A DNA stretch of 64,000 nucleotides from positions 1-64,000 of the forward strand of contig CALWJA010000063.1 of the NCBI GenBank assembly GCA_944380875.1. The letters run 5' to 3'. The notes under the pieces were generated by a model. The model worked only from the letters and a program-made list of their open reading frames with translations, had not been told where the DNA came from and ran no database searches. Position numbers and translations under genes: made by a program. Shown one piece after another: positions 503 through 18,313 of this stretch. The first letter of the stretch is position 1. Each line of letters opens with the position of its first letter. Source of the stretch: an uncultured Clostridia bacterium (GTDB lineage: Bacteria; Bacillota; Clostridia; Oscillospirales; Acutalibacteraceae).

Positions 503-587
503 TGGTGGAGGAGGATGGATTCGGACCATCGAAGCGAAACGCAACAGATTTACAGTCTGCCCCCTTTGGCCACTCGGGAACTCCTCC
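503..587 (-). tRNA. tRNA-Tyr (GTA anticodon)
   Basis: The minus strand begins GGAGGAGTTCCCGAGTGGCC, ends in the complementary CTCCTCC-A-CCA, and carries anticodon GTA in the loop context ACTGTAAAT. The 85-nt length with a long variable arm (class II) and the encoded CCA end fit bacterial tRNA-Tyr. It is co-transcribed behind tRNA-Thr and ends 4 nt before a strong terminator. Confidence 0.95.
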
Positions 588-660
588 AAATATATAAGCT
601 GTTACCAGCTTTTTTAACTTCCTCGGCTTCATAAAAGCTGTGAAAGGAAGATGCACACAA

Positions 661-736
661 TGGAGCTGGTAGACGGACTCGAACCCCCGACCTGCTGATT
701 ACAAATCAGCTGCTCTACCAACTGAGCTACACCAGC
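661..736 (-). tRNA. tRNA-Thr (TGT anticodon)
   Basis: The minus strand GCTGGTGTAGCTCAGTTGGT folds as a standard cloverleaf: acceptor GCTGGTG/TACCAGC, D arm AGCTC...GAGC, anticodon loop TTTGTAA with anticodon TGT, T loop TTCGAGT and an encoded CCA. The length is 76 nt. The T stem shows one G-G mismatch and one wobble. First gene of a two-tRNA unit with tRNA-Tyr. Confidence 0.95.
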
Positions 737-5706: not shown

Positions 5707-5812
5707 ATGATACAGATTACAAGACTTGTGACAGGGATCTGTCACACCTTTTCAATACAACTCCTCCCCAAAAAAGCAAAAGCTGGCGTAAGCCGGCTTT
5801 TGCTTTTTTTAT
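5707..5812 (+). ncRNA. Candidate trans-acting small RNA with C-rich anti-SD linker
   Basis: A transcript of about 105 nt is bounded by a perfect promoter and an intrinsic terminator. Structure read from sequence: a 7-bp hairpin GTGACAG (5728-5734) / CTGTCAC (5739-5745) with loop GGAT; an unpaired linker ending in CTCCTCCCC (5761-5769); then a 13-bp terminator hairpin AGCAAAAGCTGGC / GCCGGCTTTTGCT (loop GTAA) and a T run. The linker is complementary to GGGGAGGAG-type Shine-Dalgarno sequences, the design seen in Firmicutes regulators such as RsaE/RoxS. An ATG at the 5' end opens a frame that runs through the terminator and has no ribosome binding site, so I do not treat it as coding. It does not match any RNA family I recognise. 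Confidence 0.72.
5775..5810. terminator. Bidirectional terminator shared by hflX and the small RNA
   Basis: 13-bp stem at 5775-5787 / 5792-5804 with loop GTAA, followed by T residues on the plus strand and flanked by A residues on the other side (five Ts on the minus strand). It ends the sRNA on the plus strand and hflX on the minus strand. Confidence 0.9.
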
Positions 5813-7080
5813 TGTTTTTCCGGATGGGATAGAAATACATACTCTTCGAGAATAGGAACCAGTTCTTGAGCTACAGACACTTTCATATGAAGCCCCTCCG
5901 GAAAATATTCTTCTTCGTACACCCTGCCTTCTTGGCGGATCCGTGCTGCCAATCCGCTTTTAGAAAAAGGGAGCAAAATTTCCATATCACACATTTTTTC
6001 CGGCAAGTTTTCTTCTATAGCAGCAAGCAGGCTATCTATTCCCTTTCCTTCCAACGCGCTGATCCGAACTGCATTGCCAATCATGGGAGCTTCCCAAAGG
6101 GATGGAACTAAATCACACTTATTGAGTACAGAAATCACAGGTCTCCCGCCGCAGCCCAACTCCGCCAAAAGGTTTCGGGTAACCTCCAAATGCACTTGGG
6201 CCTCCGGGCTGGAAGCGTCACATACGTTGAGAATAATGTCCGCCAAGGCTGCCTGTTCCAAGGTAGAATGGAATGCCTGCACTAAATGATGAGGCAGCCT
6301 GCGAACCAATCCAACCGTATCAATAAGCATAACCGTCCTGCCGCAGGGGAGGCGCAATGCCCTGGCTGTAGGATCCAGGGTGGCAAACAGTTTGTTTTCC
6401 GCCAATACACCCGCCTGCGTGAGAAGATTCATCAAGGTGCTTTTTCCCGCATTGGTATATCCTACCAGTGCCACTGTAATGATGCCGTCCTTTTTCCGTC
6501 TTAGGTTCTGCTGCTCACGGTGTTTTTCCACTGCTTCCAGCTTTTCCTTCAAAGCTTCTATTCTTCTGCGTATATGTCTTCTGTCTGTTTCGAGTTTGGT
6601 TTCGCCGGGGCCTCTTGTACCAATACCGCCGCCCAACCGGGATAGCTTTGTTCCCATTCCTGAAAGCCTGGGAAGAAGATACCGCAGCTGTGCCAGTTCC
6701 ACCTGAAGGCGCCCCTCCCTGCTTCTGGCACGGGAAGCGAAAATATCCAAAATCAACATAGTGCGGTCTATAGTCCGCACATGGCTGATAGCCTCTATAT
6801 TCCGTATCTGAGTAGGCGTCAACTCCCGGTCAAAAATCAAAAGATCCAGTTCATGCGCCTGGCACATGGAGGCAATCTCTTCCATCATGCCTGAACCTAC
6901 ACAGGTAGCCGTATCTGGAGAAGGCCGCTTCTGGGTTACGGCTCCAAAAGGATCTGCCCCTGCACTTCTTACAAGCTCATAGAGTTCCGCCAGGGATGCT
7001 TCCGCATCGTATTCTCCCGTATCCACTTCTACCAAAAGAGCCTTTTCCGGCTCCACTTTCAGTTCCGTTATTTCCGCCAT
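5809..7080 (-). CDS. hflX: GTPase HflX
   Basis: 423 residues from ATG 7080 (protein MAEITELKVEPEKALLVEVD), chosen because GGGAGG lies 7 nt upstream; the frame continues upstream to 7194 without a better site. HflX is a ribosome-associated GTPase that splits stalled or stressed 70S ribosomes. Seen: the N-terminal HflX domain, the glycine-rich linker around GGGIGTRGPGETKLETDRR, then a G domain with G1 GYTNAGKST, G3 DTVGL and G4 NKCD. A C-terminal domain follows. The gene is monocistronic with its own promoter (7218-7246) and shares its terminator with the convergent sRNA. Confidence 0.93.
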   Translation of the reverse strand: MAEITELKVEPEKALLVEVDTGEYDAEASLAELYELVRSAGADPFGAVTQKRPSPDTATCVGSGMMEEIASMCQAHELDLLIFDRELTPTQIRNIEAISHVRTIDRTMLILDIFASRARSREGRLQVELAQLRYLLPRLSGMGTKLSRLGGGIGTRGPGETKLETDRRHIRRRIEALKEKLEAVEKHREQQNLRRKKDGIITVALVGYTNAGKSTLMNLLTQAGVLAENKLFATLDPTARALRLPCGRTVMLIDTVGLVRRLPHHLVQAFHSTLEQAALADIILNVCDASSPEAQVHLEVTRNLLAELGCGGRPVISVLNKCDLVPSLWEAPMIGNAVRISALEGKGIDSLLAAIEENLPEKMCDMEILLPFSKSGLAARIRQEGRVYEEEYFPEGLHMKVSVAQELVPILEEYVFLSHPEKQ

Positions 7081-7217
7081 GCATGAACCTCCCGCCGCAA
7101 GTATTGCCGTCCCCTTTTGGATACTTATACCTGCACTTCTATTCCCAACGACACATAAATAGCTGCTCCACAGAGCTATAGGGTGGGATTCCATAGGAAA
7201 ACGGCTCTTTGCTACAC

Positions 7218-7339: not shown

Positions 7340-7801
7340 TTAACGGAATGCCGCCCAAAAATATAGATTTCCCGCTTGATTGAGACACATTTTCTGCCCG
7401 CCAGCCTCCGGTTCCGTTTGAGACTGACGAACCGATAAGGTCTGCCCGCTTAAATTCATACCGGAGCTACCGTTAGATGGCGATGCTATCCCCATATGAA
7501 TTTCTGTTACGCCCCCGGAAAATAGCATTGGCGGCGATGAACTTTGAGCCACAAGAACAAGTTTGGGAGAAAAAGGAAGCAGAATCTGCTGCATAGCTTC
7601 GCCTGTACCTTCATAGGTTCCTGCCGCCGAGCCGCAAAGATATTTCCGTTCATCCTGTGAAAGATGGAGGCTCCCATCCGAAAGATGTCCGGAAAGCAAT
7701 GTATCCAGAAGAATATTATCGTTGCAGAAATCCTCCCGTATAGGTTTATCCTCCGCTTTCCAATTGTTTAGGCCAAGGGAGGTTTTTTCGCTTGAAGGCA
7801 T
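7340..7801 (-). CDS. Short phage tail-fibre/distal-tail-like protein
   Basis: 153 residues. The N-terminal part, LNNWKAEDKPIREDF followed by NDNILLDTLLSGHLSDGSLH, is the segment seen at the start of many Firmicutes phage tail-fibre proteins encoded just after the baseplate I/XkdU gene. The rest is Gly/Ser-rich beta-type sequence (GTYEGTGEAMQQILLPFSP...). It is the last gene of the phage cluster, 69 nt after XkdU, with ATG 7801 preceded by AGGGGAA. No larger fibre, fibre chaperone, holin or lysin follows. No clear terminator separates it from the hflX promoter. Confidence 0.65.
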   Translation of the reverse strand: MPSSEKTSLGLNNWKAEDKPIREDFCNDNILLDTLLSGHLSDGSLHLSQDERKYLCGSAAGTYEGTGEAMQQILLPFSPKLVLVAQSSSPPMLFSGGVTEIHMGIASPSNGSSGMNLSGQTLSVRQSQTEPEAGGQKMCLNQAGNLYFWAAFR

Positions 7802-7870
7802 ATTGATTCCCCTTTCTATAAAAAGATTCTAAAAAATGAGTTTGTTCAAAATTATACACAAATACCAACC

Positions 7871-8449
7871 TTATACTGCTTTGGCATGTATAATTCCCTT
7901 TCCCAGGGACTCTATATCCTTCCAGCTGAGAGCGGCGACGTCCATCTGCTGCCATGAACGCCCCTGGGCTTGGATCTGCGACCAGCTCAAGGGGCGTAGA
8001 TCCAGCAAAATCTGTAAGTGCGCCGGAACAAATCCCCCAAAAGATCGCAAAAACCTGGAAACCTCTTCCTCATTGGGATCGGAGTACGCCATACAGTAAA
8101 TGGTTCCCGGCTCTTCCGCAATCGAAACCGGTATTCCCAGGGATTCCCCCAGACGTATAAGCCCTGCCTTAGTGCCGGGTACAGCGGAAACCCGCAGCAG
8201 AAGTCTTCTGCGGCGTTCTTCTTTTTCCATTCCCTGCCCCGAAAGCCCAAAAAGACTTTCCCAAAGGCTTAATCCGTCTTCGTCCGCTGTTTCAGGAAAC
8301 AAATCCCGCATCAATTTATAGATCTGTTCATAGAGCAGATCCAAGCCTTCGGCATACGCTTCCAGCTCCCAATCTAGGGCTGTATCTCCGGAAAGGGCAT
8401 AGAGACCTGTTTCCTGCATACGCAGACGCATAGATGCAAGAGGATTCAT
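7871..8449 (-). CDS. Baseplate protein, XkdU/gpI-like (DUF2313 type)
   Basis: 192 residues resembling XkdU of PBSX and the YmfQ/DUF2313 family that follow the baseplate J gene in Mu-like phages. Seen: an N-terminal helical part with ALDWELEAYAEGLDLLYEQI, the block WESLFGLSG, the RRRLLLRVSAVPG repeat-like element and a C-terminal module ending in the SWSQIQAQGRSWQQMD tandem-like segment. The ATG overlaps the stop of the gpJ-like gene by 4 nt (AGGAGC upstream). In contractile tails this protein sits at the wedge periphery and links gpJ to fibres. Confidence 0.75.
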   Translation of the reverse strand: MNPLASMRLRMQETGLYALSGDTALDWELEAYAEGLDLLYEQIYKLMRDLFPETADEDGLSLWESLFGLSGQGMEKEERRRRLLLRVSAVPGTKAGLIRLGESLGIPVSIAEEPGTIYCMAYSDPNEEEVSRFLRSFGGFVPAHLQILLDLRPLSWSQIQAQGRSWQQMDVAALSWKDIESLGKGIIHAKAV

Positions 8450-9507
8450 GTTCCAGCTCCTTCCAAAACAATCTCACCACAAACGGCTGCCTGATTTTTA
8501 GAGATCTCCCGGTCCGCGGTTGTGTTTCCGACAAAATCTACATGCCATACAGCTCCTGTAGCGATCATAGCCCCAGCCAAATCGGTAGTATAGAATTTGC
8601 GTCCTGGCTCCAGTAAATAAAAGAAGTTTTGGATGGCCTTTCGGCACACTTTCGAAGCTCTTTCCAGGCTCCATCCGTTCTGAAGAGAAAGGGCTGCTTT
8701 TATAGGTATCGTTACCCTTTCGGCCGCTTCCACAGTAATTTTCACACCGATTTCCCTTTTTGTTTCCAAGTCCTCTCGAATTGTCTCCAAAACGCCTTCA
8801 TCGAAACTGTTCCCGCGGCTGTCTGCATATATGTTGATCTCTCCGTCATCTCCAACTGCTATCGAAACAGATCGCACCTGGGAATGCTGCATCACCGCAT
8901 CTCTATAATAGGAAAGGTTCCCTCCCTCAGGAGGATATTCCATCACCTGCAGCAGCCGTTTGCGCAGGCTTTCGTCCGATTCGGCGTCTTCCCCTCCGGA
9001 AAAAGCTTCCGGATTCGTTACGCCGTCAATACCGGAAGGTACCGTTATAAAATCCCGAATGGTGTTGGCAGCCGCATTTCCGTTTTCTCCCGGCAGTTCC
9101 GCCTCCGCTTCTACATCCACACTGGTTTCCTCATGCAGAAGCTTTGCTTCCTTCAGGGTGACATATCTTGCGCTTTCATCTCCATCCAGGGAACAAACCG
9201 TGCCGGCGGGGATGGTAATGGTATACCAGGAGGGGAGTATCACAGAAAAGCGCAGCTTTCCTCTTGCCTTTATGGCTTCCTTTCGGAAAACCCCTCTTTG
9301 GCGAGCCAATGATTCCAGCTCGGTCCCTTCCGCTGTATACGGATTTCTCTGCTTCTTCAGCCACTCCACGGCAGCCATGCAGGAAAAAATTTCCCCCGCC
9401 AGCACACGGATCCGTATATCCGTATCCGAAGCATACCGGGGTGGGAACCCCGCCAGCTCTTCATACCGTTTTTCCATACGTTCCACAAGTGCCTCATAGC
9501 TTTCCAT
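8446..9507 (-). CDS. Baseplate J-like protein (XkdT)
   Basis: 353 residues, the full length expected for PBSX XkdT / gpJ-like baseplate wedge proteins. Features: an N-terminal helical domain with the family motif YASDTDIRIRVLAGEIFSCMAAVEWL, a central segment with GTELESLARQRGVFRK, and the conserved GGEDAESDESLRKRLL block followed by GGNLSYYRDAVMQ (about 170-208) that marks this family. The reading frame is intact. Its ATG follows the gp25-like gene by 4 nt. Such proteins build the wedge of a contractile-tail baseplate, yet no sheath gene exists nearby. Confidence 0.88.
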   Translation of the reverse strand: MESYEALVERMEKRYEELAGFPPRYASDTDIRIRVLAGEIFSCMAAVEWLKKQRNPYTAEGTELESLARQRGVFRKEAIKARGKLRFSVILPSWYTITIPAGTVCSLDGDESARYVTLKEAKLLHEETSVDVEAEAELPGENGNAAANTIRDFITVPSGIDGVTNPEAFSGGEDAESDESLRKRLLQVMEYPPEGGNLSYYRDAVMQHSQVRSVSIAVGDDGEINIYADSRGNSFDEGVLETIREDLETKREIGVKITVEAAERVTIPIKAALSLQNGWSLERASKVCRKAIQNFFYLLEPGRKFYTTDLAGAMIATGAVWHVDFVGNTTADREISKNQAAVCGEIVLEGAGT

Positions 9508-9511
9508 ATTC

Positions 9512-9904
9512 TCACCTCCTGATTTCTATGGTCCGTATTCCGTGGGGAATCCGGACAGAGACGAAACACACATCTTCCTTCCACTCTGCCCGGATGGGTT
9601 CCGCCTCAGGAATCCGCTTTAAGGCCTGCCGGGCCATTTCCAAAAGCTCCGGGGGATCCTCCGTATCCCGCAGGCGGCTACCCATACTGCTGTCGTAGAC
9701 AAAACTTCCCAACGGCATGGAAAGGCAGATTTGTATTCTCTGCAAAAGCGCCTCTTCACCTGTCACCGCAAAAGGCATGGAACGATTGTCCCTTTTCAAA
9801 TCCCTGCTGTCAAAATCAAGAGCCGTGTCAAAGGCTTGCCGTGTTTTTGGTATGCTATCCTTTGCATATGCACTTGTATTGATTTTTTCTGTATTGCCAA
9901 ACAT
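9512..9904 (-). CDS. gp25/GpW-like baseplate protein (XkdS, DUF2634-like)
   Basis: 130 residues. The region TGEEALLQRIQICLSMPLGS followed by FVYDSSMGSRL is the typical core of DUF2634/XkdS and GPW_gp25 proteins, which start sheath polymerisation in contractile tails. The C-terminal beta segment (EDVCFVSVRIPHGIRTIEIRR) fits as well. ATG 9904 has GGGGAAGAAAGC upstream. Finding a sheath-initiator type protein without a sheath gene in the same cluster is odd. Confidence 0.75.
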   Translation of the reverse strand: MFGNTEKINTSAYAKDSIPKTRQAFDTALDFDSRDLKRDNRSMPFAVTGEEALLQRIQICLSMPLGSFVYDSSMGSRLRDTEDPPELLEMARQALKRIPEAEPIRAEWKEDVCFVSVRIPHGIRTIEIRR

Positions 9905-9926
9905 GCTTTCTTCCCCTTTATTCCTC

Positions 9927-10268
9927 TTATTCTGCAGCAGGAAAGACCTTTCCGTTTATTTCCACTTCCCCGTTGTTTTTCAGATATATGCAGGCATTTC
10001 CTTTGGAGAAAAGCAATAGTTCTCCCGGTTCCACAGAAAATCCTTCGGGATTTTCCATGGCAGTTCCCACACAGGCAGCTCCTTTGTTTGTCTCCACTAC
10101 CACCGCCTGCGCATAGGAGGGAGGCGCATACAGAATTCCCCATGGTCCGCAGTAAACAAATTCCGTTTTGGTTTTTTGTTCGCTGGATCCCTCGGAAGAA
10201 CGGACACGGGATACATCCGCGGCCGGTTTCCGTTTGCCTGCTTCCACAATTTGCTTAGAAATCCACAA
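9927..10268 (-). CDS. Small baseplate spike-type protein (XkdR/gpV-like position)
   Basis: 113 residues from a TTG start at 10268, with AAAGAGGTGA about 9 nt upstream overlapping the previous stop. By position between the hub (XkdQ-like) and gp25 (XkdS-like) genes it corresponds to XkdR/DUF2577 or a short gpV. The C-terminal half, SVEPGELLLFSKGNACIYLK then NNGEVEINGKVF, looks like the OB/beta-spike part of gpV-type puncturing proteins. No metal-binding tip motif is visible. The family call rests partly on synteny. Confidence 0.55.
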   Translation of the reverse strand: MWISKQIVEAGKRKPAADVSRVRSSEGSSEQKTKTEFVYCGPWGILYAPPSYAQAVVVETNKGAACVGTAMENPEGFSVEPGELLLFSKGNACIYLKNNGEVEINGKVFPAAE

Positions 10269-10277
10269 TGGATTTGT

Positions 10278-11228
10278 TCACCTCTTTCTCCGCAAAATAC
10301 ACCTGCAGTTTTCCCCTTTGCTGGAAAGGCTGTATCGAAGTTCCGAAATATAAAGCCCCTCCATTCGAATGCCTTCCCGGAAAAGTTCCAGGGAAGCGGG
10401 GGTTCCTATTCCCTCTTTGGGAAATCCCGGGCATACGATCTCTACGCAGAAGGCGTTTTTTTCCCCTTTGAGAAGGGCTTCCTCGGCCTGTTCCCGGCTG
10501 CCGGTGAGAAGCCTTCTCCGTCGGATCCCCAGTTTTTGAGCATTTTCATTTAGAACGGAAACCGCATACCTTTCTGTATCATCCGGCCTCAAAAGGATCT
10601 CTGAATATCTTTCGCAAAGTTCTTCCACTATGGAAAACTCCCATACAGGAATGTCTTTTCCAAACCGCAGCACGTCTCCGGCTTTTTCCACACTCCGGCA
10701 AGCTTCCAGCCGGTTCCCTTTCGCCTGGAGAGACGCCTTAAGATACCGGCTGCAAAAAAGGGAAAGGACTTCCCATTCACTCATCCCTTTGGAAATAGTA
10801 AAAGGAGCCACAAATCCATTTGTTTCTCCCCTGCACTCTGTAAAGCCGTAGGGTTTTCCATGGCGCTCAAAAAGGATAGGAAGGGACGCATACGAATACG
10901 TCTGTGGGATCGCTTCGTTGTCCAATAATAGGGCAGCCTGGCTTCGGGCTGTGATCTCCAGCACATGCTCCCCGGAAGAAGCCGTATGCCGAAGCTCGTC
11001 GATGGGGCCGAAGAAGGCCGTTTCCCCTCCTTCCCCGCAGATCTCCAGAAAAACCGGCTCCTGTTCCTGAAAGGAGTTTTTCCAGGGAAATACTCCCGCA
11101 AAAGCGTCTGCCGGCGTGTTTTCCTCCATGGAAAGGGACACCTCTATGGGATCTCCCAAAGGGATTCGTTCTTCCTTAGGTCCGTATGCCGTATATGTAA
11201 AATGGGGATGCCTATACCATTGGGTCAT
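10278..11228 (-). CDS. Tail hub protein (XkdQ / gpD-like)
   Basis: 316 residues, the normal length of PBSX XkdQ. Such proteins form the trimeric hub on which the tail tube is built (T4 gp27/Mu gp44 fold). Seen: a beta-rich N-terminal part, the central FFGPIDELRHTASSGEHVLEI block and LLLDNEAIPQTYSYAS, which is the usual 'ARSQAALLLDNEA' element, and a C-terminal domain with HxLxR-like spacing. The gene overlaps the end of the LysM gene by 4 nt. Intact frame. Confidence 0.78.
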   Translation of the reverse strand: MTQWYRHPHFTYTAYGPKEERIPLGDPIEVSLSMEENTPADAFAGVFPWKNSFQEQEPVFLEICGEGGETAFFGPIDELRHTASSGEHVLEITARSQAALLLDNEAIPQTYSYASLPILFERHGKPYGFTECRGETNGFVAPFTISKGMSEWEVLSLFCSRYLKASLQAKGNRLEACRSVEKAGDVLRFGKDIPVWEFSIVEELCERYSEILLRPDDTERYAVSVLNENAQKLGIRRRRLLTGSREQAEEALLKGEKNAFCVEIVCPGFPKEGIGTPASLELFREGIRMEGLYISELRYSLSSKGENCRCILRRKR

Positions 11229-11746
11229 TCCGCCGTCCTCCCTGCCTGCAGGATTTTCCCTTCTTCCAGATCATTGATCCAGGGGATCCGATTTTGCTCC
11301 AGCCATATTTCCAAGGGAATCCCCGTTTCCGCCTGCACCCTCCAAAGAGAATCCTTTTCCTTGCATACATAGACCGTTTCTTTTTCCGCTAAACACGGTT
11401 TATCCTCTTCTGTGAAAGCAAAGGAGTAATGGGTTTCTCCGGGTCTTCCCAGGGCATTCAGTTTCAGAGAGGAAAATACAGCCAAAAAAGGAGGAAAACC
11501 CGGCATGGAAAGAGTTCCCGCTCCCCCTTCCTCAAATACTTGGGCCAGCCGGCGAAACTGCCTGAGAGAATCTTCCCCAAAAAAGCAGCCTTTTCCGGTG
11601 ACAATCCGTTTTTTCCGGCCCATGTCCTGCAGGAGAGAGCCTTTCAGCGGCAGCACCTTTTCCTGCAAATTCCGGTCATAGGAAACCGTAATCTCTGAAG
11701 GGTTCACGGGCCATCGGTATTTTTTAAATTGCATCGTAAGGCTCAT
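11225..11746 (-). CDS. LysM-type tail/baseplate hub protein (XkdP-like)
   Basis: 173 residues. The N-terminal domain (about 1-115) has the pattern RWPVNPSEITVSYDRNLQEK with GEDSLRQFRRLAQVFEEGG, typical of XkdP-like proteins. The C-terminal 50 residues form a LysM module (VYVCKEKDSLWRVQAETG then LEQNRIPWINDLEEGKILQ). XkdP normally sits directly after the tape-measure gene; here it directly follows a 38-codon ORF whose stop overlaps its ATG (ATGA). Its presence marks the right edge of the missing tail-tube module. Confidence 0.78.
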   Translation of the reverse strand: MSLTMQFKKYRWPVNPSEITVSYDRNLQEKVLPLKGSLLQDMGRKKRIVTGKGCFFGEDSLRQFRRLAQVFEEGGAGTLSMPGFPPFLAVFSSLKLNALGRPGETHYSFAFTEEDKPCLAEKETVYVCKEKDSLWRVQAETGIPLEIWLEQNRIPWINDLEEGKILQAGRTAE

Positions 11747-11859
11747 CCCTCTTCTCCCTCCAAATCCAGATTTCGCGGAAACCTTCGGGATTCCCGCTCG
11801 ATTTCTTCCGAAATCCGCTCCGTTTCCGTTCCTAAGTTTTGCCGCAGGTTCTCTTCCAT
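11743..11859 (-). CDS. 38-codon ORF at the tail-module junction
   Basis: ATG 11859 to TGA 11743 encodes MEENLRQNLGTETERISEEI followed by ERESRRFPRNLDLEGEEG. A strong ribosome binding site, TAAGGAGGAGAGAGG, precedes it and its stop overlaps the XkdP ATG (ATGA), so it should be translated and coupled to XkdP. The protein is highly acidic and charged, with a likely amphipathic helix at 3-27. It occupies the place where sheath, tube, chaperone and tape-measure genes (about 6-8 kb) stand in PBSX. It could be a remnant, such as the C terminus of a tail chaperone, or a new small gene. I recognise no family. Confidence 0.7.
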   Translation of the reverse strand: MEENLRQNLGTETERISEEIERESRRFPRNLDLEGEEG

Positions 11860-11933
11860 CCTCTCTCCTCCTTAAAGCCCGCCTCTGTCCCTTCCCGTTT
11901 CGTTTTTACTCCCTTATTCCGGCATCACAGCCT

Positions 11934-12221
11934 TCAGCCGCTGCAGAAAGCACCCTGCTCTTCCTTGAGGATGGCCCACTCATACAGTTTTTCCTTCCCC
12001 AAAAAGGCCGAGTCTCCCCGCAGGACCACCAGGTGTTTCTCCCCAAAAGTCACCTTTTCGCCGGAGGACATTCCGCTTCCCGCAGGAGCCGCACACCAGT
12101 ATTCCTCCCCATTTTCCTGCGTCTTTCGCAGAGGGCGCAAAAGCGCCCTAGTCTCTTTTCCCCGGATCATAACCGGGCTTCCGTATTTGCGGATTGCGTA
12201 ATCCACTCTCAGGCCGCTCAT
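11934..12221 (-). CDS. Head-tail joining protein, XkdH/YqbH-like
   Basis: 95 residues from ATG 12221 (protein MSGLRVDYAIRKYGSPVMIR), chosen over the longer frame because AAAGGAGCAGAG lies upstream and the longer version would overlap the previous gene. The core RVDYAIRKYGSPVMI plus a beta-rich remainder fits PBSX-type XkdH/YqbH stopper-like proteins that close the head connector. Family call from position and pattern, moderate confidence. After it, the next expected genes (XkdI, XkdJ, sheath XkdK, tube XkdM, XkdN, tape measure XkdO) are missing. Confidence 0.6.
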   Translation of the reverse strand: MSGLRVDYAIRKYGSPVMIRGKETRALLRPLRKTQENGEEYWCAAPAGSGMSSGEKVTFGEKHLVVLRGDSAFLGKEKLYEWAILKEEQGAFCSG

Positions 12222-12240
12222 ACCGTTTCTCTCTGCTCCT

Positions 12241-12630
12241 TTATACTCCAATTCCCGGTTTGGGAAAGGGCCGCATCTGCTGAAATACAAAATCTGTATC
12301 CCGTAGGCATCCGGCCGCAGCGTTTCTGTATTCTTCCCAGATTTTTCTGGCTTTTTCTGAAAGGGCGATGTCCTTTTTCACCTGAATTTCCCCGGATGCA
12401 AAACTTTCCGGAGCTCGAACCCCTTCCAAAAGTGCCCACCGGTAAAAAGCCAGAGCCGCGGCGGCCCCATGCAAAAGTTCTTCTTCCTGGGCAGTGAGGG
12501 AACTTTTTGCCATCCCTTCCACCTGCGCCGCCGCATCCCGGCACAAAAGGCTGTGCCGCTGGGCTTCTTCTTGCTCCATTCCGGCAAGAGCCGCAAAGCG
12601 CTCTGTCAGAGCCTGCATGTCCCAATTCAT
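12241..12630 (-). CDS. Head-tail connector/adaptor protein (YqbG/gp6-like position)
   Basis: 129 residues, mainly alpha-helical: two long helices (about 5-55 and 80-110), with FYRWALLEGVR between them. Encoded directly after the major capsid protein (stop TAA and ATG adjacent), the place of YqbG/HK97 gp6-type adaptors. No sequence motif is decisive; the assignment rests on position, size and helical character. Confidence 0.55.
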   Translation of the reverse strand: MNWDMQALTERFAALAGMEQEEAQRHSLLCRDAAAQVEGMAKSSLTAQEEELLHGAAAALAFYRWALLEGVRAPESFASGEIQVKKDIALSEKARKIWEEYRNAAAGCLRDTDFVFQQMRPFPKPGIGV

Positions 12631-13647
12631 TTACGCACCCTTATAGGTAAGAACCTTGCAGGCGCCGTCGAAGATTCGGGAGAATCCTGTAATGGTGCTG
12701 ATAACCGCTCTTTCCAGCTGACGATCAATCAGCTTATCGGATTCTGTAAGCACATCGCCGGCCTGTACCATTTCCAGGGCGCAGGTTTTATCCAATGCAA
12801 TGATTTTTTCTTCTTCCAAGCTGGGCACATGAATCAGATTGGCACCAAGAGGTGTAATCAATTTTCCCGTTCCCTGGAAAGTAAGACCCGCCTGGGAATC
12901 CTGGAACTGGGTAATTTCCAGAAGATCCTTCATAGCCGCTGTAGACGCCAGCGCTGTGTTCATGGAATAAGGCGCCAGAGCTCCCCAAAGGGATACCATA
13001 TCGCCGTAAGCGGGCTTCTCCCCGGAAGTAGTGATTGTAGCCGCAGGTGTCTTGCCGTCGTCCCCGTTAAGCAGAACCGCAATAGCGTCTTTAAGCTGCG
13101 CGCGGGCAATATAGGCTCCGATCTGGCGGAGGGTTACGGTAAAAAGATCCAATTTCTGAAACCGGATGGCTTCATAAGAGGAAACCAGCATTCTCCCTCT
13201 TTTCTGGAGCTTTACCAGTGTGTCTTTCGTCCTGACCACCGTTTCGGGAATAGCGGCTCCCTCCGCTACCGGCTTCAGGGTCTTATCATCCTCCGAAAGA
13301 TCGGAGGTAATGGTGCGGTAATCCATGCCGTCAATTTTAGTCACTGTGGCTACAATGGAAGGCAGTACGTCCGCCTGTTCCATCCCCTGGCGTACAGCCC
13401 GGCTAATATATTCCGGAAACAGCGCAGCAGAAGACGAAGTCTGAAAGAATTTTTCCACCGGATCAGATCCGCTTCCTCCTACCCGAATGTCAAAACGCTT
13501 GAGCTGGCGCTGGTAAGCGTCCATTCCCTCAAGGGGTGTGCCCCTGTAGTTTTCCGAAGGATCCATCTCCTCCAAAACCTGAGAAAAATTTTTGTGGGGC
13601 ACAGTGTACATGCCTTTTTCCAAAGTTACCGATTCAAATCCTGCCAT
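12631..13647 (-). CDS. Major capsid protein (XkdG-type, HK97 fold)
   Basis: 338 residues, full length for the PBSX XkdG family. Seen: an N-terminal arm with helical content, SSSAALFPEYISRAVRQGME, the E-loop-like ATVTKIDGMDYRTITSDLSE, the spine helix region VKLQKRGRMLVSSYEAIRFQ, and a C-terminal P-domain-like end KLIDRQLERAVISTITGFSR. ATG 13647 is preceded by GAGGAGGAGATAAA. Assembles the icosahedral head. The intact frame suggests either recent loss of the tail module or ongoing selection. Confidence 0.85.
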   Translation of the reverse strand: MAGFESVTLEKGMYTVPHKNFSQVLEEMDPSENYRGTPLEGMDAYQRQLKRFDIRVGGSGSDPVEKFFQTSSSAALFPEYISRAVRQGMEQADVLPSIVATVTKIDGMDYRTITSDLSEDDKTLKPVAEGAAIPETVVRTKDTLVKLQKRGRMLVSSYEAIRFQKLDLFTVTLRQIGAYIARAQLKDAIAVLLNGDDGKTPAATITTSGEKPAYGDMVSLWGALAPYSMNTALASTAAMKDLLEITQFQDSQAGLTFQGTGKLITPLGANLIHVPSLEEEKIIALDKTCALEMVQAGDVLTESDKLIDRQLERAVISTITGFSRIFDGACKVLTYKGA

Positions 13648-13679
13648 TTTATCTCCTCCTCAAAATCACGTATTGGGGC

Positions 13680-14036
13680 TTACAGAAGAATGCCCGCTGT
13701 CTCGCCGGTGGTATCAACAGAAACTACCAGAAGTTCTCTTCCGGCTGTAACTGCCTCCGAATCGGCCTTTTTCATGCCGCCGTTTCCATCCGCACAAAGG
13801 AACTGATATCCCACTGTGGGAGCTGTGCCGGAATACGCCACCTCGGCATATCCTGCCAGCTGAACGGCCGCAAACCCGCCTCTGTTGGAAAGCACCACGC
13901 CGGCAAATTTTTCGCCGGCCCCGCAGGCGGATACCTGTCCGTTTCCGGATACTTTCACCACATCCCCCGGATTCAGCCCATCCTCCGCTTCAAAAGTAGC
14001 CGCATTTTCCTTCCAACCATTAAACGATACTGTCAT
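13680..14036 (-). CDS. Small capsid-associated (decoration/DUF2190-like) protein
   Basis: 118 residues, beta-rich, with repeated Val/Gly pairs: NPGDVVKVSGNGQVSACGAGEKFAGVVLSN and a C-terminal GRELLVVSVDT. Lying between protease and major capsid genes, as head-decoration proteins of the DUF2190 or gpD type do. Good ribosome binding site (ATGGAGGCAAAAAA) before ATG 14036. The decoration role is inferred from position and fold-like pattern. Confidence 0.6.
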   Translation of the reverse strand: MTVSFNGWKENAATFEAEDGLNPGDVVKVSGNGQVSACGAGEKFAGVVLSNRGGFAAVQLAGYAEVAYSGTAPTVGYQFLCADGNGGMKKADSEAVTAGRELLVVSVDTTGETAGILL

Positions 14037-14097
14037 TTTTTTGCCTCCATTTCTTTTTGTGTTGTATTTCTCCTACAATCCAAGGCGTTCCTGCGTC

Positions 14098-15171
14098 TTA
14101 GATCGTATAGGGATCTTTTTCCGTTCCATCCTCATATCCCGTATTTCCTTCTTTTTTTGCGGGATACAGCTGCGGGTGAAGAGGATATTTCTCCTGAGCC
14201 GTGTGTAAAAAGGCTTTTTCCAATGCCTTCAGATCCTCCAGGGAAAGATTCTCCGCCATCCTGCAAAGGATACCTTCTTCCAGCTTCGGGAAAATAAGCC
14301 CGCCCAGTTTTCGGATGGTGTCCCTGAGTTCTTTGCTATACGTTCTTCCCGCCGCAGCTTCCTTTTCCAAATTTTCCAGGCAGCAAGCCATTTTTTCGCA
14401 GTTTTCCGCCGAGATATGCATTCCGTCCCGAGCCTTTCGAAGCTGTATTGCAGCCGCCTGCCCCGCGTTCTCGTCCTTCCATACCAGTTCCATAATTTCT
14501 CCTGCACCCTCCTCATCATATGCAAATTGTTTGATTACACCGGCTTCCCGTTGGGCCGGGACAGCAACAAAAGACCATTCATACGCGTCCACCGGGTCTT
14601 CCAAAATGTCCGCGCAGAGTTTTCCCTCGTAAAGCTGCCCTTTCCGATGGGTGCAGGAACGTTGTTTTCTATCTGCTCCGCAAATGGAGCAAACCTGCTT
14701 TTCCACCGCGCAGCCTACGCTGACTTCCTTATGTATGCCGCTTTCCAACCCAAGAATCAAACGGTCGTTTTCCCCGCCTCTGGGGATATACGCTCTGGCC
14801 ACCAGACGTGTATAAGGTTCTCCCGCCTGGGTTTTTCTGCCCGGAATTTCTTCCACCCGGCAGCTAAAGATTCTGGCCGCCTGGTTTCTGGCGTCGGGTG
14901 TATGGTTGAAGATTCCCGTTTTCCCCTCGAAAAGCGGAGCCAGCTTTCTAAGAGACGAAATGCTGAAGCGCTCTAAATCCCTATCCGTCTCATTGTCGCA
15001 AAGAACTACCGTAAACGTATACAATTCCTCCGGCCGGAACGCCCGCCTGGTATATCGGCCGATCTGTTCCATCTCTTCCGGGCCCGGTGTTCCGTTTTCC
15101 CCGTCAGCCTCCTGCAGAATTTCTTCTTTTTCTTCTATTTCCTGAGCCGCCATGGTATATTGTTTTATCAT
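14098..15171 (-). CDS. XkdF-like prohead protease/scaffold protein with zinc-finger-like insert
   Basis: 357 residues from ATG 15171 (GAAGGGGGAAGAGGG upstream), overlapping the portal stop by 4 nt. The N-terminal two thirds match XkdF-type prohead proteins. Candidate catalytic residues are His90 in FNHTPDA and Ser151 in HKEVSVGCAV, as in the HK97/U9/U35 prohead protease fold. Directly after the serine is a CxxC...CxH cluster (Cys161, Cys164, Cys173, His175), followed by the EDPVDAYEWSFVAVPAQREA block. The C-terminal third is helical and charged, as expected of a scaffold. No separate scaffold gene exists. Confidence 0.75.
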   Translation of the reverse strand: MIKQYTMAAQEIEEKEEILQEADGENGTPGPEEMEQIGRYTRRAFRPEELYTFTVVLCDNETDRDLERFSISSLRKLAPLFEGKTGIFNHTPDARNQAARIFSCRVEEIPGRKTQAGEPYTRLVARAYIPRGGENDRLILGLESGIHKEVSVGCAVEKQVCSICGADRKQRSCTHRKGQLYEGKLCADILEDPVDAYEWSFVAVPAQREAGVIKQFAYDEEGAGEIMELVWKDENAGQAAAIQLRKARDGMHISAENCEKMACCLENLEKEAAAGRTYSKELRDTIRKLGGLIFPKLEEGILCRMAENLSLEDLKALEKAFLHTAQEKYPLHPQLYPAKKEGNTGYEDGTEKDPYTI

Positions 15172-16409
15172 GCTTTTCCCTCTTCCCCCTTCTTCAAAGT
15201 TTGTTCCAGCTGCAAAGCCCTGGCATTCAGCCACCGGGCATTGGCATTTTCCGTTTCGTCCTGAAGGGTAATCTCATCCCATAGGATTTCATAATCCTGC
15301 GCCTTTCCTTCCAGCCGAAACCAGAGACCGCAGATTTTTCGGATAGCCGGCTCCAAAAGCCTTCTGTAAAACTCCAGTTCGCTTGTAAGAATATCCGCCT
15401 GCTGGCTGGACATCCGTTCCGTAGAAGACCAAGATAGCCCCAAGAGAAAAGGAGGAAGCCCAAGCTTGGCTACAATCTGTTCCAGCATCTGCCGGACGGG
15501 AACTTCGCTGTCCAGAATTTTCCCGTCCGCTCCGATGGTTTGGATGGACACATCTCCCACGGCCACAAAATCCGACGGTGCCTCATTTTGCATAGCCTTG
15601 CGCCATTCTCCCGCTATCTGGGACGCTCTTTCCCGGGCAAAAGCCCGATCTCCATCGTTTCCCGGCTTATAGGTAACGGCAAAACGGACATCGCCTACCC
15701 GCTCCCAATTGATTCCCATGCTGCGATAGATTTTCAAAAGGATCTCTGTAACAAAAGGCAGGCTCCTCAGGATAGAAACGCCCCAGGGCGTCCCCGGTTC
15801 CGGGCATAAAGCCGTGGAAAACACCAGTTCCGGCCAGGGAAGGGGCTTTGCCTCTCCGTTTTCCCGCGTTAATATTTTCATTTCCAAAGGGGATTCCTGC
15901 CGCAGTTCCACGTCGTCCAGAGAGGCGTTATACAAAGCCCCTATATGGCCTTCGGCATCTAAAACGATTTCACCCACTGCCGTTCCGTATAAAAGAAGCT
16001 GTTCCAGGTAGGAATCCAGAAAGCTTTGGATTCCTTGCTGGGCTCCGTTTACAGGAACAGAGCAGAGAAATTGAGAAATCAGCCTCTGCTCTTCCGGATT
16101 CCTGCATGTAACCTGAAAACCTCCCGCCAGCCGGATAATTTTTCCGATGGCTGCATCAATAATAGGGACATGGTCCCGCAGGGCCTTATACAGCCTTCTT
16201 TCTCCCGGATCCGGCGTTGGGGAAAATCTCCCTCCATAAAACCGGAATGGATCCCGGCTTCCGGTCTGCACAGCCTTAACCGGAATCCCTCCGGGCTGCC
16301 CGCTTCCGGCTTTTAAAGTTCCCGGAATTTCGCAACCGCTTTCTCCGTTTCTTTTCCGGGAACGATTCCAAAAAGCGGACCATTTGTTTTTCTTTTTTTC
16401 TGTATCCAA
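15168..16409 (-). CDS. Phage portal protein (XkdE-like)
   Basis: 413 residues, full portal length for the PBSX/HK97-like family. TTG start at 16409 with GGGGAGG 5 nt upstream, just after the terminase stop. Seen: HVPIIDAAIGKIIRLAGG, the clip/stem region LYNASLDDVELRQE, then PWGVSILRSLPFVTEILLKI and the conserved C-terminal LGLPPFLLGLSWSSTERMSS followed by QQADILTSELEFYRRLLEP. Portal dodecamers form the DNA-entry vertex and dock the terminase. Intact. Confidence 0.87.
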   Translation of the reverse strand: MDTEKKKNKWSAFWNRSRKRNGESGCEIPGTLKAGSGQPGGIPVKAVQTGSRDPFRFYGGRFSPTPDPGERRLYKALRDHVPIIDAAIGKIIRLAGGFQVTCRNPEEQRLISQFLCSVPVNGAQQGIQSFLDSYLEQLLLYGTAVGEIVLDAEGHIGALYNASLDDVELRQESPLEMKILTRENGEAKPLPWPELVFSTALCPEPGTPWGVSILRSLPFVTEILLKIYRSMGINWERVGDVRFAVTYKPGNDGDRAFARERASQIAGEWRKAMQNEAPSDFVAVGDVSIQTIGADGKILDSEVPVRQMLEQIVAKLGLPPFLLGLSWSSTERMSSQQADILTSELEFYRRLLEPAIRKICGLWFRLEGKAQDYEILWDEITLQDETENANARWLNARALQLEQTLKKGEEGKA

Positions 16410-16410
16410 A

Positions 16411-17673
16411 TCATCCTCCCCTTTCTACAGACAGTACAGGCGCTCCCATGTCTTCTTCCATGGGAAGCAAGGTAGTCACAAAATACCGAATATCGTCCAT
16501 GGCATGATCGTTTTCTTTCACCGGCGCGTCCCCTGTTGTGCCTTGCGCCCAGCGATAAAGGCCAAATTCCCGAATAGAATCCACGCAGTTTCTGCATATG
16601 CGGATCCTCCCCTCTTTGAGAGCAACGCTCACCTGCCGGATTCCATCCAAAACCTGGTTTTTAGCCGGCAGTACCCGAAATCGCCCGTGCCGCAGGATCG
16701 TTTCGATAAAACTTGCGGCAGAAGGATCTACAACTATACACTCTACTTCCTTGATTCCTTCCCTTTCCAGCAGTTCTTCCAAGCCTCTGTAATGCTCTTC
16801 ATCCGTGCGGGAGGAACCCTCTTTTCTGGAATCATAATAGTATTCGCAGACCCTGTACCATACTCCATCCTTTTCGCCCCAAACCCCAAAGGAAGACGGG
16901 TTTACCGTTCCGTAATCGCAGGATATTCTGTAATGCCTGCAGGAAGAAACCGGCTGACAAAAATCCTCTTTTTTCATAAAGGGATACACCAATCCCCGGG
17001 TTTCCGCCCATTCTCCCAATATGAACCGCCTGTAAAAAGGACCCGAATACAGTTTTTCATAGCGTTCTTTGATTTCCGGGCTAAGAGAAGGATTATCCTC
17101 CATGGTGAAATGCAGATAGAGAACGTTTTTTTCTTCCGCTTTCCGGATCCACTCCTGATAAAACCAGTGCTGCGGGTATTCAGGGTTGCAGTTAAACCAA
17201 AACCGGCTTCCATCCACAGAGCACCGGGCCAAAGCCTGTTCTACAAAAGAACGGGGCATTAAGGCCGTTTCGTCCAGGAATACACCGGAAAGCGTGATTC
17301 CTTGAATCAATGCCGCGCTTCCTTCATCCTTTCCTCCAAACAGGTAGAAACGGTTTTCTCCCTCCTCGTATCGTATGCGGAGAAGATTTTCCGTCTCCCT
17401 GTAAATACAGGAAAATCCCTCCTCTTGAAGGGCAGGGAGAAGAGTTCCCATCAAATTTCGTTTCAGAGAACGGATGGTCTTGCCGCAAAAGGCAAAATCG
17501 GCATCTTGAAATTGCCAGAAAGCCCAAAGTACAAATCCTAAACCCATGCAGAGGGTTTTCCCGCTCCGAACGGCTCCATCGCAGATTAAGGCAGTTTTTG
17601 TGGATAAGGGATTTTCGGGCCGCCACCAGCTCATGGCCAAAAGCTGTTTTTCCGAAAAATGCTTAATCCTCAT
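16411..17673 (-). CDS. Terminase large subunit (XtmB-like)
   Basis: 420 residues from ATG 17673 (AAGGAAAACGG upstream), overlapping the end of the small-subunit gene. The ATPase domain has Walker A GAVRSGKT (about 33-40) and Walker B VFLDE (about 131-135). The C-terminal RNase-H-type nuclease domain begins at SCDYGTVNPSSFG (Asp253) with VVDPSAASF and the acidic end NDHAMDDIRYF. All expected catalytic acids are present, so packaging motor and headful nuclease look functional. It resembles PBSX XtmB more than Mu. Confidence 0.9.
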   Translation of the reverse strand: MRIKHFSEKQLLAMSWWRPENPLSTKTALICDGAVRSGKTLCMGLGFVLWAFWQFQDADFAFCGKTIRSLKRNLMGTLLPALQEEGFSCIYRETENLLRIRYEEGENRFYLFGGKDEGSAALIQGITLSGVFLDETALMPRSFVEQALARCSVDGSRFWFNCNPEYPQHWFYQEWIRKAEEKNVLYLHFTMEDNPSLSPEIKERYEKLYSGPFYRRFILGEWAETRGLVYPFMKKEDFCQPVSSCRHYRISCDYGTVNPSSFGVWGEKDGVWYRVCEYYYDSRKEGSSRTDEEHYRGLEELLEREGIKEVECIVVDPSAASFIETILRHGRFRVLPAKNQVLDGIRQVSVALKEGRIRICRNCVDSIREFGLYRWAQGTTGDAPVKENDHAMDDIRYFVTTLLPMEEDMGAPVLSVERGG

Positions 17674-18211
17674 TTTTGCCGTTTTCCTTCTGGGGCTCCT
17701 GCACATTTCCGTCTTTTCCCCGGTATTTTTCCGAAAGAAGCAGGGCGCTTTCCTTAAGCGCTTCATATAAAGGCCGGCTTTCTTCGTGTTCCCGGCCATT
17801 TTCCGCTTCCATCAAATACTGGAGGGCCTTTAAACGGTCATAGAATTTCATCTCCAGTTGTCCATCTTTCCCACGCTTCAGTTCTGAAACCGTATAGAGA
17901 TCTAAAGAATCCAGAATCTCTATATCATCAGGCGTCGTGTATAAAAGGCGGACAGCATCCCGAATGTCCCCAAACGCCAGCCTCCGTATTCCTTCTTCTG
18001 CTGTCTCGTCGGGCTTTTTTCTTTTTTTCCTAGCCTTTCGCGCTGAAGGCTTCCCATTCGCCTGCCCATTCCCGTCATCCGTCGGTTTTTCTTTCCGGCA
18101 AACCAGCGGGGAGTCCTTTTTTTCATCCTCTTGCTTCTGATGGCCGACCTCTCCTGCTCCTTCCTCACAGAAACCCGTCTGCGTTTCAAAAGCTTCCTGC
18201 TTTTTCAGCAA
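17663..18211 (-). CDS. Terminase small subunit, C-terminal domain only (XtmA-like)
   Basis: 182 residues from a TTG at 18211, chosen because GTGAAAGGAGG stands 9 nt upstream; the frame continues to 18307 but those codons show no helix-turn-helix. Residues 73-138 match the terminase-interaction end of XtmA-type small subunits: DIRDAVRLLYTTPDDIEILD, SELKRGKDGQLEMKFYDRLK. The N-terminal part is a charged, low-complexity linker (about 8-70, with KARKKRKK) instead of the usual HTH DNA-recognition domain. First gene of the phage cluster. No integrase, repressor or late activator gene precedes it. Confidence 0.7.
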   Translation of the reverse strand: MLKKQEAFETQTGFCEEGAGEVGHQKQEDEKKDSPLVCRKEKPTDDGNGQANGKPSARKARKKRKKPDETAEEGIRRLAFGDIRDAVRLLYTTPDDIEILDSLDLYTVSELKRGKDGQLEMKFYDRLKALQYLMEAENGREHEESRPLYEALKESALLLSEKYRGKDGNVQEPQKENGKNED

Positions 18212-18313
18212 ATCGGAAAACCTCCTTTCACCTATCCCGCAAACAGACTCTAAACTTACTCTTTTGAAGGTATGTTTATAAAATTTTTCTGTATAAATAA
18301 AAACCACGCAATA

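What the first reader, a model, noticed from the sequence alone, without database searches (positions are those of the whole stretch)
7340..18211. Capsid-plus-baseplate phage cluster with the entire tail-tube module missing
All genes are intact and tightly packed in one direction: terminase small/large, portal, protease, decoration, capsid, two connector proteins, then directly XkdP-, Q-, R-, S-, T-, U-like baseplate genes and a fibre. The PBSX genes XkdI to XkdO (sheath, tube, chaperones, tape measure) are absent, as are lysis, integrase and repressor genes. Intact frames argue against long neutral decay. Possibilities: recent deletion, a split system with tail genes elsewhere (as in several gene-transfer agents), or a domesticated particle with a new role.
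Basis: partly seen in the sequence, partly recalled or inferred. Interest (0 to 1): 0.85.

Follow-up and report, generated by a model that had tools for sequence, protein, structure and literature searches.

The report
Inherited phage capsid, tail dismantled stepwise
This gut-type bacterium carries an intact, single-copy set of phage capsid genes that many related bacteria share, and in its lineage the tail tube, the sheath and nearly all of a presumed tape measure are gone while capsid, DNA-packaging and baseplate genes stay under selection; it likely makes stub-tailed particles that would carry pieces of the bacterium's own DNA to other cells.

Summary
In detail: fifteen intact genes run TerS-TerL-portal-protease-decoration-capsid-two connectors, then straight into baseplate and fibre; tube and sheath searches of the own genome find nothing (controls 96, 97). 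It is not a lone deletion, and no split module was found. The portal is found in 175 of 300 genomes of the family (80 of 135 genera), one match in 174 of them; the capsid in 89 of 197 genomes of another family of the order. The genes co-diverge with the neighbouring host gene hflX and are under purifying selection. Relatives form a graded series: short contractile tail; tube without sheath; tube fused to a neck protein; no tube (this window); no baseplate. A 38-codon ORF is the last remnant of the presumed tape measure. In the window's clade TerS lacks its DNA-binding domain while TerL keeps its catalytic residues, a published hallmark of gene transfer agents. Best reading: a gene-transfer-agent-like element with its tail whittled to a baseplate on the neck. 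Packaging and transfer are unshown. Nearest known: the Faecalibacterium FpGTA of 2026 (PMC12946183).

The parts
17663..18307 (-). [quoted passage not shown]
   Evidence: homology to relatives' TerS; Terminase_2 N-terminal part absent
16411..17799 (-). large terminase TerL, ATPase and nuclease residues conserved
   Evidence: phrog_2, Terminase_6N, TIGR01547; alignment of 41; solved homologue 5oe8
15168..16409 (-). portal protein
   Evidence: phrog_30703 E 1.6e-129
14098..15174 (-). presumed prohead protease/scaffold (first start in frame lies upstream, 15234)
   Evidence: phrog_16951 E 1.3e-96, unknown function; protease reading from recalled motifs
13680..14036 (-). capsid decoration/structural protein
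   Evidence: phrog_4588 E 3e-26
12631..13647 (-). major capsid protein
   Evidence: phrog_3922 E 4.7e-99; Phage_capsid_4
12241..12630 (-). head-tail connector 1 (adaptor-like)
   Evidence: conserved position and profile in relatives; no library hit
11934..12290 (-). connector 2 = neck stopper; the tube domain fused to it in Caproiciproducens is absent here
   Evidence: stopper profile; aligned with the stopper-tube fusion whose model matches solved stoppers
11743..11859 (-). 38-aa ORF: C-terminal relic of the tape-measure-position protein
   Evidence: motif profile hits the C-terminus of 95-231 aa proteins just before XkdP in sheathed relatives
11225..11746 (-). XkdP-like baseplate protein with DNA_circ_N domain
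   Evidence: PF07157 E 2.6e-7, phrog_184
10278..11228 (-). XkdQ-like baseplate hub
   Evidence: phrog_177 E 5.7e-10
9927..10268 (-). XkdR-position spike-like protein
   Evidence: phrog_25991, unknown function; position
9512..9904 (-). XkdS/gp25-like wedge protein (sheath initiator family, kept without a sheath)
   Evidence: phrog_120 E 6.4e-7; Sheath_initiator E 6.4e-5, below Pfam cut-off
8446..9507 (-). XkdT/Baseplate_J wedge protein
   Evidence: PF04865 E 1.3e-39, phrog_6
7871..8449 (-). XkdU/Gp48-like protein
   Evidence: phrog_521 E 9.3e-16; PF10076 below Pfam cut-off
7340..7801 (-). short fibre, presumed receptor-binding
   Evidence: conserved in relatives; weak tailspike/fibre fold matches
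5809..7194 (-). host gene hflX, downstream neighbour in most loci of the window's clade

Best explanation
This is a phage-derived gene cluster, inherited with its host genes and kept under purifying selection, that likely works as a gene-transfer-agent-like DNA-packaging particle whose contractile tail was dismantled stepwise, leaving a baseplate that would sit directly on the capsid neck. Shown: single copy and wide spread; a conserved place beside hflX and co-divergence with it; purifying selection; absence of sheath, tube and all but the C-terminal end of the tape-measure-position protein in loci of at least five genera; absence of the TerS DNA-binding domain; conservation of the TerL catalytic residues. 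Inferred: TerL, not steered to phage DNA by TerS, fills capsids with unselected host DNA by the headful; the stopper closes the head; relic peptide, hub and spike plug it; the fibre binds a sister cell, and DNA enters through a stub rather than a contractile tube. Lysis and control genes would be unlinked and are not identified.
For: Portal in 175 of 300 family genomes (80 of 135 genera), one match in 174 of the 175; among the matches listed (the list was cut) nine show a stop codon inside the aligned stretch. Capsid in 58 of 345 order genomes, 89 of 197 genomes of a second family, and 5 of 291 genomes drawn from the class, four of them of this order, the own genome included. hflX downstream in 24 of 126 loci, all in the window's clade; distances of six element proteins track hflX distances over those 24, Mantel r 0.67-0.78, 0 of 2000 permutations as high. 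dN/dS against the same-genus G031 0.03-0.25 in 13 of 15 genes, with dS high (1.1-2.3); in TerS and connector 2 it could not be computed. Graded types in 142 loci: A 39, B 35, Ct 11, Cs 11, D 10, E 25, F 7, D? 4. Tube domain homologous across separate and fused forms; fusion model pLDDT 90.6, residues 1 to about 100 like solved stoppers, about 97-221 like solved tail tubes including RcGTA's. Tape-measure relic. TerS DNA-binding domain absent in 10 of 10 D and 11 of 11 Cs loci (two of the Cs copies start at a contig end), present in 25 of 25 E and 29 of 35 B. TerL Walker A, Walker B and three acidic nuclease residues invariant in 41 (roles recalled). [quoted passage not shown] GTA-like packaging of host DNA reported in gut Ruminococcaceae and Oscillospiraceae (PMC12946183; abstract, passages, sections 9, 10, 26).
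Against: No particle, packaged DNA or transfer is shown for this lineage. No lysis or regulator gene lies at the locus; they were not searched elsewhere. The TerS DNA-binding domain varies across the family of elements: kept in most B and all E loci, absent in 25 of 34 sheathed loci, ten changes on the tree, so it neither defines the element nor proves a single loss. Connector 2 has dN/dS 0.78 against G155, and baseplate proteins are far less conserved than the head (hub 29-61%, capsid 67-91% identity to the window in seven relatives), which fits receptor change or weaker constraint. One genome (G283) has the capsid and protease genes in two frames each. How a hub would dock on a stopper without a tube ring is not modelled. 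A very divergent tube protein would escape the profiles.
Confidence: 0.65

Rival explanations
1. A domesticated capsid-plus-baseplate particle that does not deliver DNA: for instance a PBSX-like killing particle, or a capsid with another role.
For: TerL belongs to the PBSX family (TIGR01547); PBSX is said to package DNA without injecting it and to act as a tailocin (stated in PMC12946183). Tube-less particles have no obvious DNA conduit.
Against: A tail-based killer should keep tube and sheath; here these are lost while head and packaging genes are the best conserved, and E-type relatives lack the baseplate genes but keep TerL and portal.
Confidence: 0.2
2. Split system: the tail tube module sits elsewhere in the genome and joins the particle.
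For: GTAs often have accessory genes at other loci (PMC11841831), and FpGTA has two operons about 125 kb apart (PMC12946183).
Against: Tube and sheath profiles find nothing in the own genome, in four further type D genomes (G031, G155, G219, G127) or in G054; a fifth type D genome (G134) gives one 22-position tube match at E 0.014. 132 of 175 portal-positive genomes have no Phage_sheath_1 match anywhere (intersected by hand).
Confidence: 0.05
3. Recent deletion in a prophage that is now decaying.
For: The tail core is missing and no integrase or repressor is present.
Against: Same state in ten loci of at least five genera, low dN/dS, open frames in the window and in most relatives.
Confidence: 0.02
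4. A capsid-bearing phage satellite or mobile element that borrows a tail from a helper phage.
For: Satellites can carry their own head genes (recalled). Some portal-positive genomes do hold sheath genes (43 of 175), in a few of them inside the cluster itself.
Against: Place beside hflX and co-divergence with it; no integrase; no sheath match in the own genome; it carries its own baseplate and fibre.
Confidence: 0.05

Closest known systems
FpGTA of Faecalibacterium (Borodovich et al., Nat Commun 2026, PMC12946183)
   Same: Gut host of the same broad group; compact operon with TerS, TerL, portal, scaffold, capsid; TerS without obvious DNA-binding domain; no replication genes; particles of about 40 nm without visible tails, holding about 9 kb of DNA. 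Its portal and capsid accession numbers differ by two, which suggests one gene between them, as in the related loci L253-L255 and L257-L259 (my inference).
   Different: FpGTA has a head operon and a separate baseplate/lysis operon; here head, neck, baseplate and fibre are one operon without lysis genes. Sequence homology to FpGTA could not be tested: its sequence is not held by name here. A word search of the paper finds no Acutalibacter, Anaeromassilibacillus, Caproici- or sheath.
RcGTA and other known GTAs
   Different: RcGTA has a tail tube, which the window lacks; no sequence kinship was tested.
PBSX of Bacillus subtilis
   Same: PBSX-family TerL; baseplate gene order like XkdP-XkdU (recalled).
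   Different: No sheath, tube, chaperone or full tape measure (XkdI-XkdO), no lysis genes at the locus; placed beside hflX in another class of bacteria.
Phage large terminase of PDB 5oe8
   Same: TerL 441 bits over 408 residues.
   Different: Only the motor is compared; the phage of origin was not looked up.

Membership tests
Gene transfer agent | Phage-derived structural cluster inherited vertically with the host | tested here: met
   175 of 300 family genomes, one match in 174; hflX neighbour and Mantel tests over 24 loci
Gene transfer agent | Small terminase lacks the DNA-binding domain (PMC11841831) | tested here: met
   Met for the window and its clade (0 of 10 D, 0 of 11 Cs); not met in 29 of 35 B and 25 of 25 E relatives
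Gene transfer agent | Working packaging motor | tested here: inconclusive
   Catalytic residues of TerL invariant in 41 sequences; activity not tested
Gene transfer agent | No replication, integration or lysogeny genes in the cluster | tested here: met
   None among the fifteen ORFs between the DUF5317 gene and hflX by Pfam and PHROGs; four ORFs have no library match
Gene transfer agent | Particles package random host DNA, too little for the whole cluster | not testable with these tools
   Needs particles; a virome scaffold of an E-type relative carries the element and ribosomal genes but contamination is not excluded
Gene transfer agent | Delivers DNA to recipient cells | not testable with these tools
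   Needs a transfer assay
FpGTA family | Sequence homology of capsid and portal to FpGTA I | not tested
   FpGTA sequences not held by name; only layout compared
PBSX-like contractile phage particle | Sheath, tube and tape measure | tested here: not met
   with controls 96, 97
Temperate prophage | Integrase, repressor, lysis genes | tested here: not met
   None found between the flanking host genes

The most novel reading that the evidence does not exclude
An order-wide, vertically inherited gene transfer agent family in Oscillospirales is taking a contractile tail apart in parallel lineages: sheath first, tape measure down to its hub-binding tip, tube fused to the neck and then lost, finally the baseplate itself, with the fibre moved onto the neck. 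The window carries a tube-less 'plate-on-neck' DNA delivery particle, a myovirus turned into a podovirus-like particle by gene loss alone.
Probability: 0.45. Interest if true: 0.92.

Novelty: new variant of a known kind. Interest (0 to 1): 0.82.

Why it matters
GTA-like packaging of host DNA in gut Ruminococcaceae and Oscillospiraceae was reported in 2026, with a gene cluster identified only for Faecalibacterium (PMC12946183). This family gives a candidate machine in dozens of further genera, some with cultured members (Caproiciproducens, Caproicibacter, Anaeromassilibacillus), so DNA transfer by particles becomes testable there. It also supplies a natural series in which tail parts are lost one by one, which lets one ask which parts of a phage tail are needed to deliver DNA.

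Tried and rejected
Recent deletion and split module: rejected as above.

Split baseplate in E relatives: of 21 E-type genomes of the family sample, 16 have no Baseplate_J match at E up to 1e-3 and 5 have only matches from 2e-30 to 7e-4 (read by hand), so there too the baseplate looks lost, not moved. Type E was set as fewer than three baseplate genes: three E loci (L215, L223, L237) still have a tube gene and L215 also XkdP and hub.

Capsid profile against solved structures: no match at E 0.01.

Naming a Faecalibacterium copy: protein searches with a seven-row capsid profile (7168 hits, 120 listed) and with the capsid of L298 (2468 hits, 120 listed) gave, among the few names shown, only Oscillospiraceae bacteria and Ruminococcus sp., so homology to FpGTA stays untested.

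Virome evidence: MT835508.1, a scaffold from a Mexican human faecal set, holds an E-type element with SecY, L5, L6 and M24 peptidase genes. The likely source study treated particles with chloroform and DNase (PMC8361208, passages; the link to these accessions is inferred from country and sample type, not stated). Three scaffolds of that record series match secY in the collection. This fits packaging but equally contamination; I give it little weight.

Promoter and terminator scan: 9 promoter-like sites against 13.9 in shuffles, 38 terminator-like against 21.5; not followed.

Rows dropped before counts: 170 loci had TerL, portal and capsid over 300 aa; 21 near-identical ones (over 98.5% capsid identity) were dropped to 149; 23 with too little downstream sequence ('?') were left out of the type counts; 16 loci of other families were added with types set by hand from the gene map. 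Four 'D?' loci have room for a divergent tube and are not counted as tube-less. In the parsimony count E and D? were not scored for the tube, D and F were scored tube-less, and F was scored as having a baseplate because of its hub. The relic motif profile was built from 43 short ORFs, two of which (L179, L245) were picked from a wrong frame; the seeds match by construction. The independent part is 19 of the 26 sheathed loci with a found XkdP, hit at E below 1 directly before XkdP, against one such hit elsewhere in sheathed loci. Many genomes are incomplete MAGs.

Full report
What is there. The region 7340-18307 (minus strand) holds TerS, TerL, portal, a presumed protease, a decoration protein, the major capsid protein, two connectors, and then XkdP-, XkdQ-, R-, S-, T- and U-like baseplate proteins and a short fibre. 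Frames are open and overlap or nearly touch. The flanks are host genes: DUF5317 and an HD-domain protein upstream, hflX downstream. Between connector 2 and XkdP there are 187 bp with a 38-codon ORF.

Is the tail module elsewhere? The own genome (2.76 Mb, 106 contigs, 99.99% complete) has no Phage_sheath_1 match. Profiles of the relatives' tube (25 rows) and sheath (17 rows) find nothing in it up to E 10. On 13 genomes the tube profile rings in the six that have a tube (E 2e-14 to 4e-45; G204, G213 and G097 are not among its rows) and in none of the type D genomes except a 22-position match at E 0.014 in G134; the sheath profile rings strongly in the three genomes with a sheath in the cluster, all of which are among its rows, and at 9e-8 in one sheath gene elsewhere in G234.

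How widespread and how inherited? The window's portal matches in 175 of 300 genomes of the family (80 of 135 genera), with one match in all but one. A 39-row capsid profile matches 58 of 345 genomes of the order and 5 of 291 drawn from the class, four of these five being of the order. In a second family 89 of 197 genomes match a capsid profile of that family. Named loci include Caproiciproducens, Caproicibacter, Anaeromassilibacillus, Acutalibacter and Ruminococcus genomes or MAGs. hflX lies directly downstream in 24 of 126 loci, all inside one clade with the window (support 0.90); the two same-genus genomes are collinear on one or both sides. Pairwise distances of TerL, portal, capsid, hub, Baseplate_J and XkdP proteins follow those of hflX over these 24 loci (Mantel r 0.67-0.78; none of 2000 permutations as high). 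Nei-Gojobori dN/dS between window and G031 is 0.03 (capsid) to 0.25 in 13 genes with high dS; for TerS and connector 2 it could not be computed. This is inheritance with the host under selection, not decay.

The series of tails. I mapped genes and domains in loci from genome, virome and whole-genome sources. Type A has a short sheath (about 345 aa), a tube (about 130 aa), a chaperone-position and a short tape-measure-position gene. Type B has neck stopper, terminator and tube but no sheath. Type Ct has terminator and tube fused; type Cs has stopper and tube fused and no terminator. Type D, the window's, has the stopper but no tube. Type E has head and neck with at most two baseplate genes, in nine of 24 loci with the fibre domain fused to the terminator. 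Type F, in the second family, ends with a hub. On a tree of TerL, portal and capsid (142 loci) the fewest changes are 8 for sheath, 5 for tube and 7 for baseplate. The Oscillospiraceae group on the far side of the midpoint root shows only the sheathed type among its typed loci, and sheathed loci are scattered through the window's family, so losses look parallel. These are minimum numbers on a FastTree topology with weak nodes and an assumed root.

Packaging. TerL keeps Walker A (RSGK), Walker B (DE) and three acidic nuclease residues in all 41 sequences (roles recalled) and is close to a solved phage terminase (5oe8, 441 bits). Five TerS proteins of sheathed, B and E relatives of the family match the full Terminase_2 domain, including the N-terminal part; two short TerS (L038, L190) match only its second half and the window's not at all. 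By a profile of the N-terminal part it is absent in 10 of 10 D and 11 of 11 Cs loci and in all 30 loci of the window's clade, although the longest possible ORF was taken; L111 and L112 start at a contig end and say nothing. It is present in 25 of 25 E and 29 of 35 B loci, 7 of 11 Ct, 2 of 7 F, and absent in 25 of 34 sheathed loci, ten changes on the tree, so whether the clade lost it or inherited its absence is not settled, though its sister groups in the family mostly have it. [quoted passage not shown] Its absence is the best single argument for GTA-like function here; E and most B relatives may package differently.

Most likely mechanism. Shown are gene content, inheritance, selection and absences. 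Inferred: unselective headful packaging of host DNA into a small capsid; closure by portal, adaptor and stopper; a baseplate docked on the neck with the relic peptide in the hub; binding through the fibre; DNA entry through a stub. Lysis and regulation would be unlinked, as is common for GTAs; I did not search for them genome-wide.

Literature. In the held library, searches for GTA with Oscillospir-, Faecalibacterium, Clostridia+tail, Ruminococcus callidus and small terminase, and for Acutalibacteraceae+capsid, domesticated prophage+Ruminococcaceae and Caproiciproducens+prophage found one paper on point: Borodovich et al. 2026 (PMC12946183; abstract, passages, sections 9, 10 and 26 read). It reports GTA-like packaging of 4.6-8.9 kb host DNA fragments in gut Ruminococcaceae and Oscillospiraceae and a two-operon FpGTA in Faecalibacterium whose particles show no identifiable tails. 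A word search of its text finds no sheath, Acutalibacter, Anaeromassilibacillus or Caproici-. Most subscription journals and preprints are not held, so novelty is judged within that limit.

Verdict. Observation confirmed; domestication supported; deletion rejected and split module not found. Filed as a new, tail-reduced variant of gene-transfer-agent-like elements, with function unproven.

Noticed in passing
L253-L259, L283-L287, L296, L298, L301, L302 (second family of the order): Compact operons TerS-TerL-portal-protease-capsid-adaptor-(terminator)-hub without other recognised tail genes, laid out much like the published FpGTA I; in L256, L298 and L302 the capsid gene precedes the protease gene.
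   Followed up: partly
L298 (contig of 2573208 bases): Capsid is 90% identical over 82% of its length to a partial protein named Ruminococcus sp.; the contig size recalls R. champanellensis, a relative of R. callidus for which 4.6 kb GTA-like packaging without a named cluster is published. Identity rests on recall.
   Followed up: no
L175 (MT835508.1): A virome scaffold carries an E-type element about 11-12 kb from ribosomal spc-operon genes, i.e. host chromosome in a particle fraction or contamination.
   Followed up: partly
L089, L093, L096-L099, L101, L102, L106-L110, L123-L126, L128-L131, L270: In one sheathed group the head genes are reordered to decoration-capsid-portal-protease.
   Followed up: no
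L182 (G283) and L148: Capsid and protease genes each lie in two frames: a sequencing error or a decaying copy.
   Followed up: no
G217 contig 72, 145876-146772: A second, more divergent capsid homologue in a genome with the element (E 3e-104).
   Followed up: no
G919 contig 20 (another order of the class): A lone divergent capsid match (E 9.5e-59) outside the order, possibly a phage relative.
   Followed up: no
L034 and L038, upstream of TerS: A divergent ABC transporter pair precedes the cluster in Caproiciproducens, in L034 with a GntR-like regulator (names from a look at the sequence only).
   Followed up: no
window 503-736: tRNA-Tyr and tRNA-Thr genes on the minus strand, not next to the element.
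   Followed up: no
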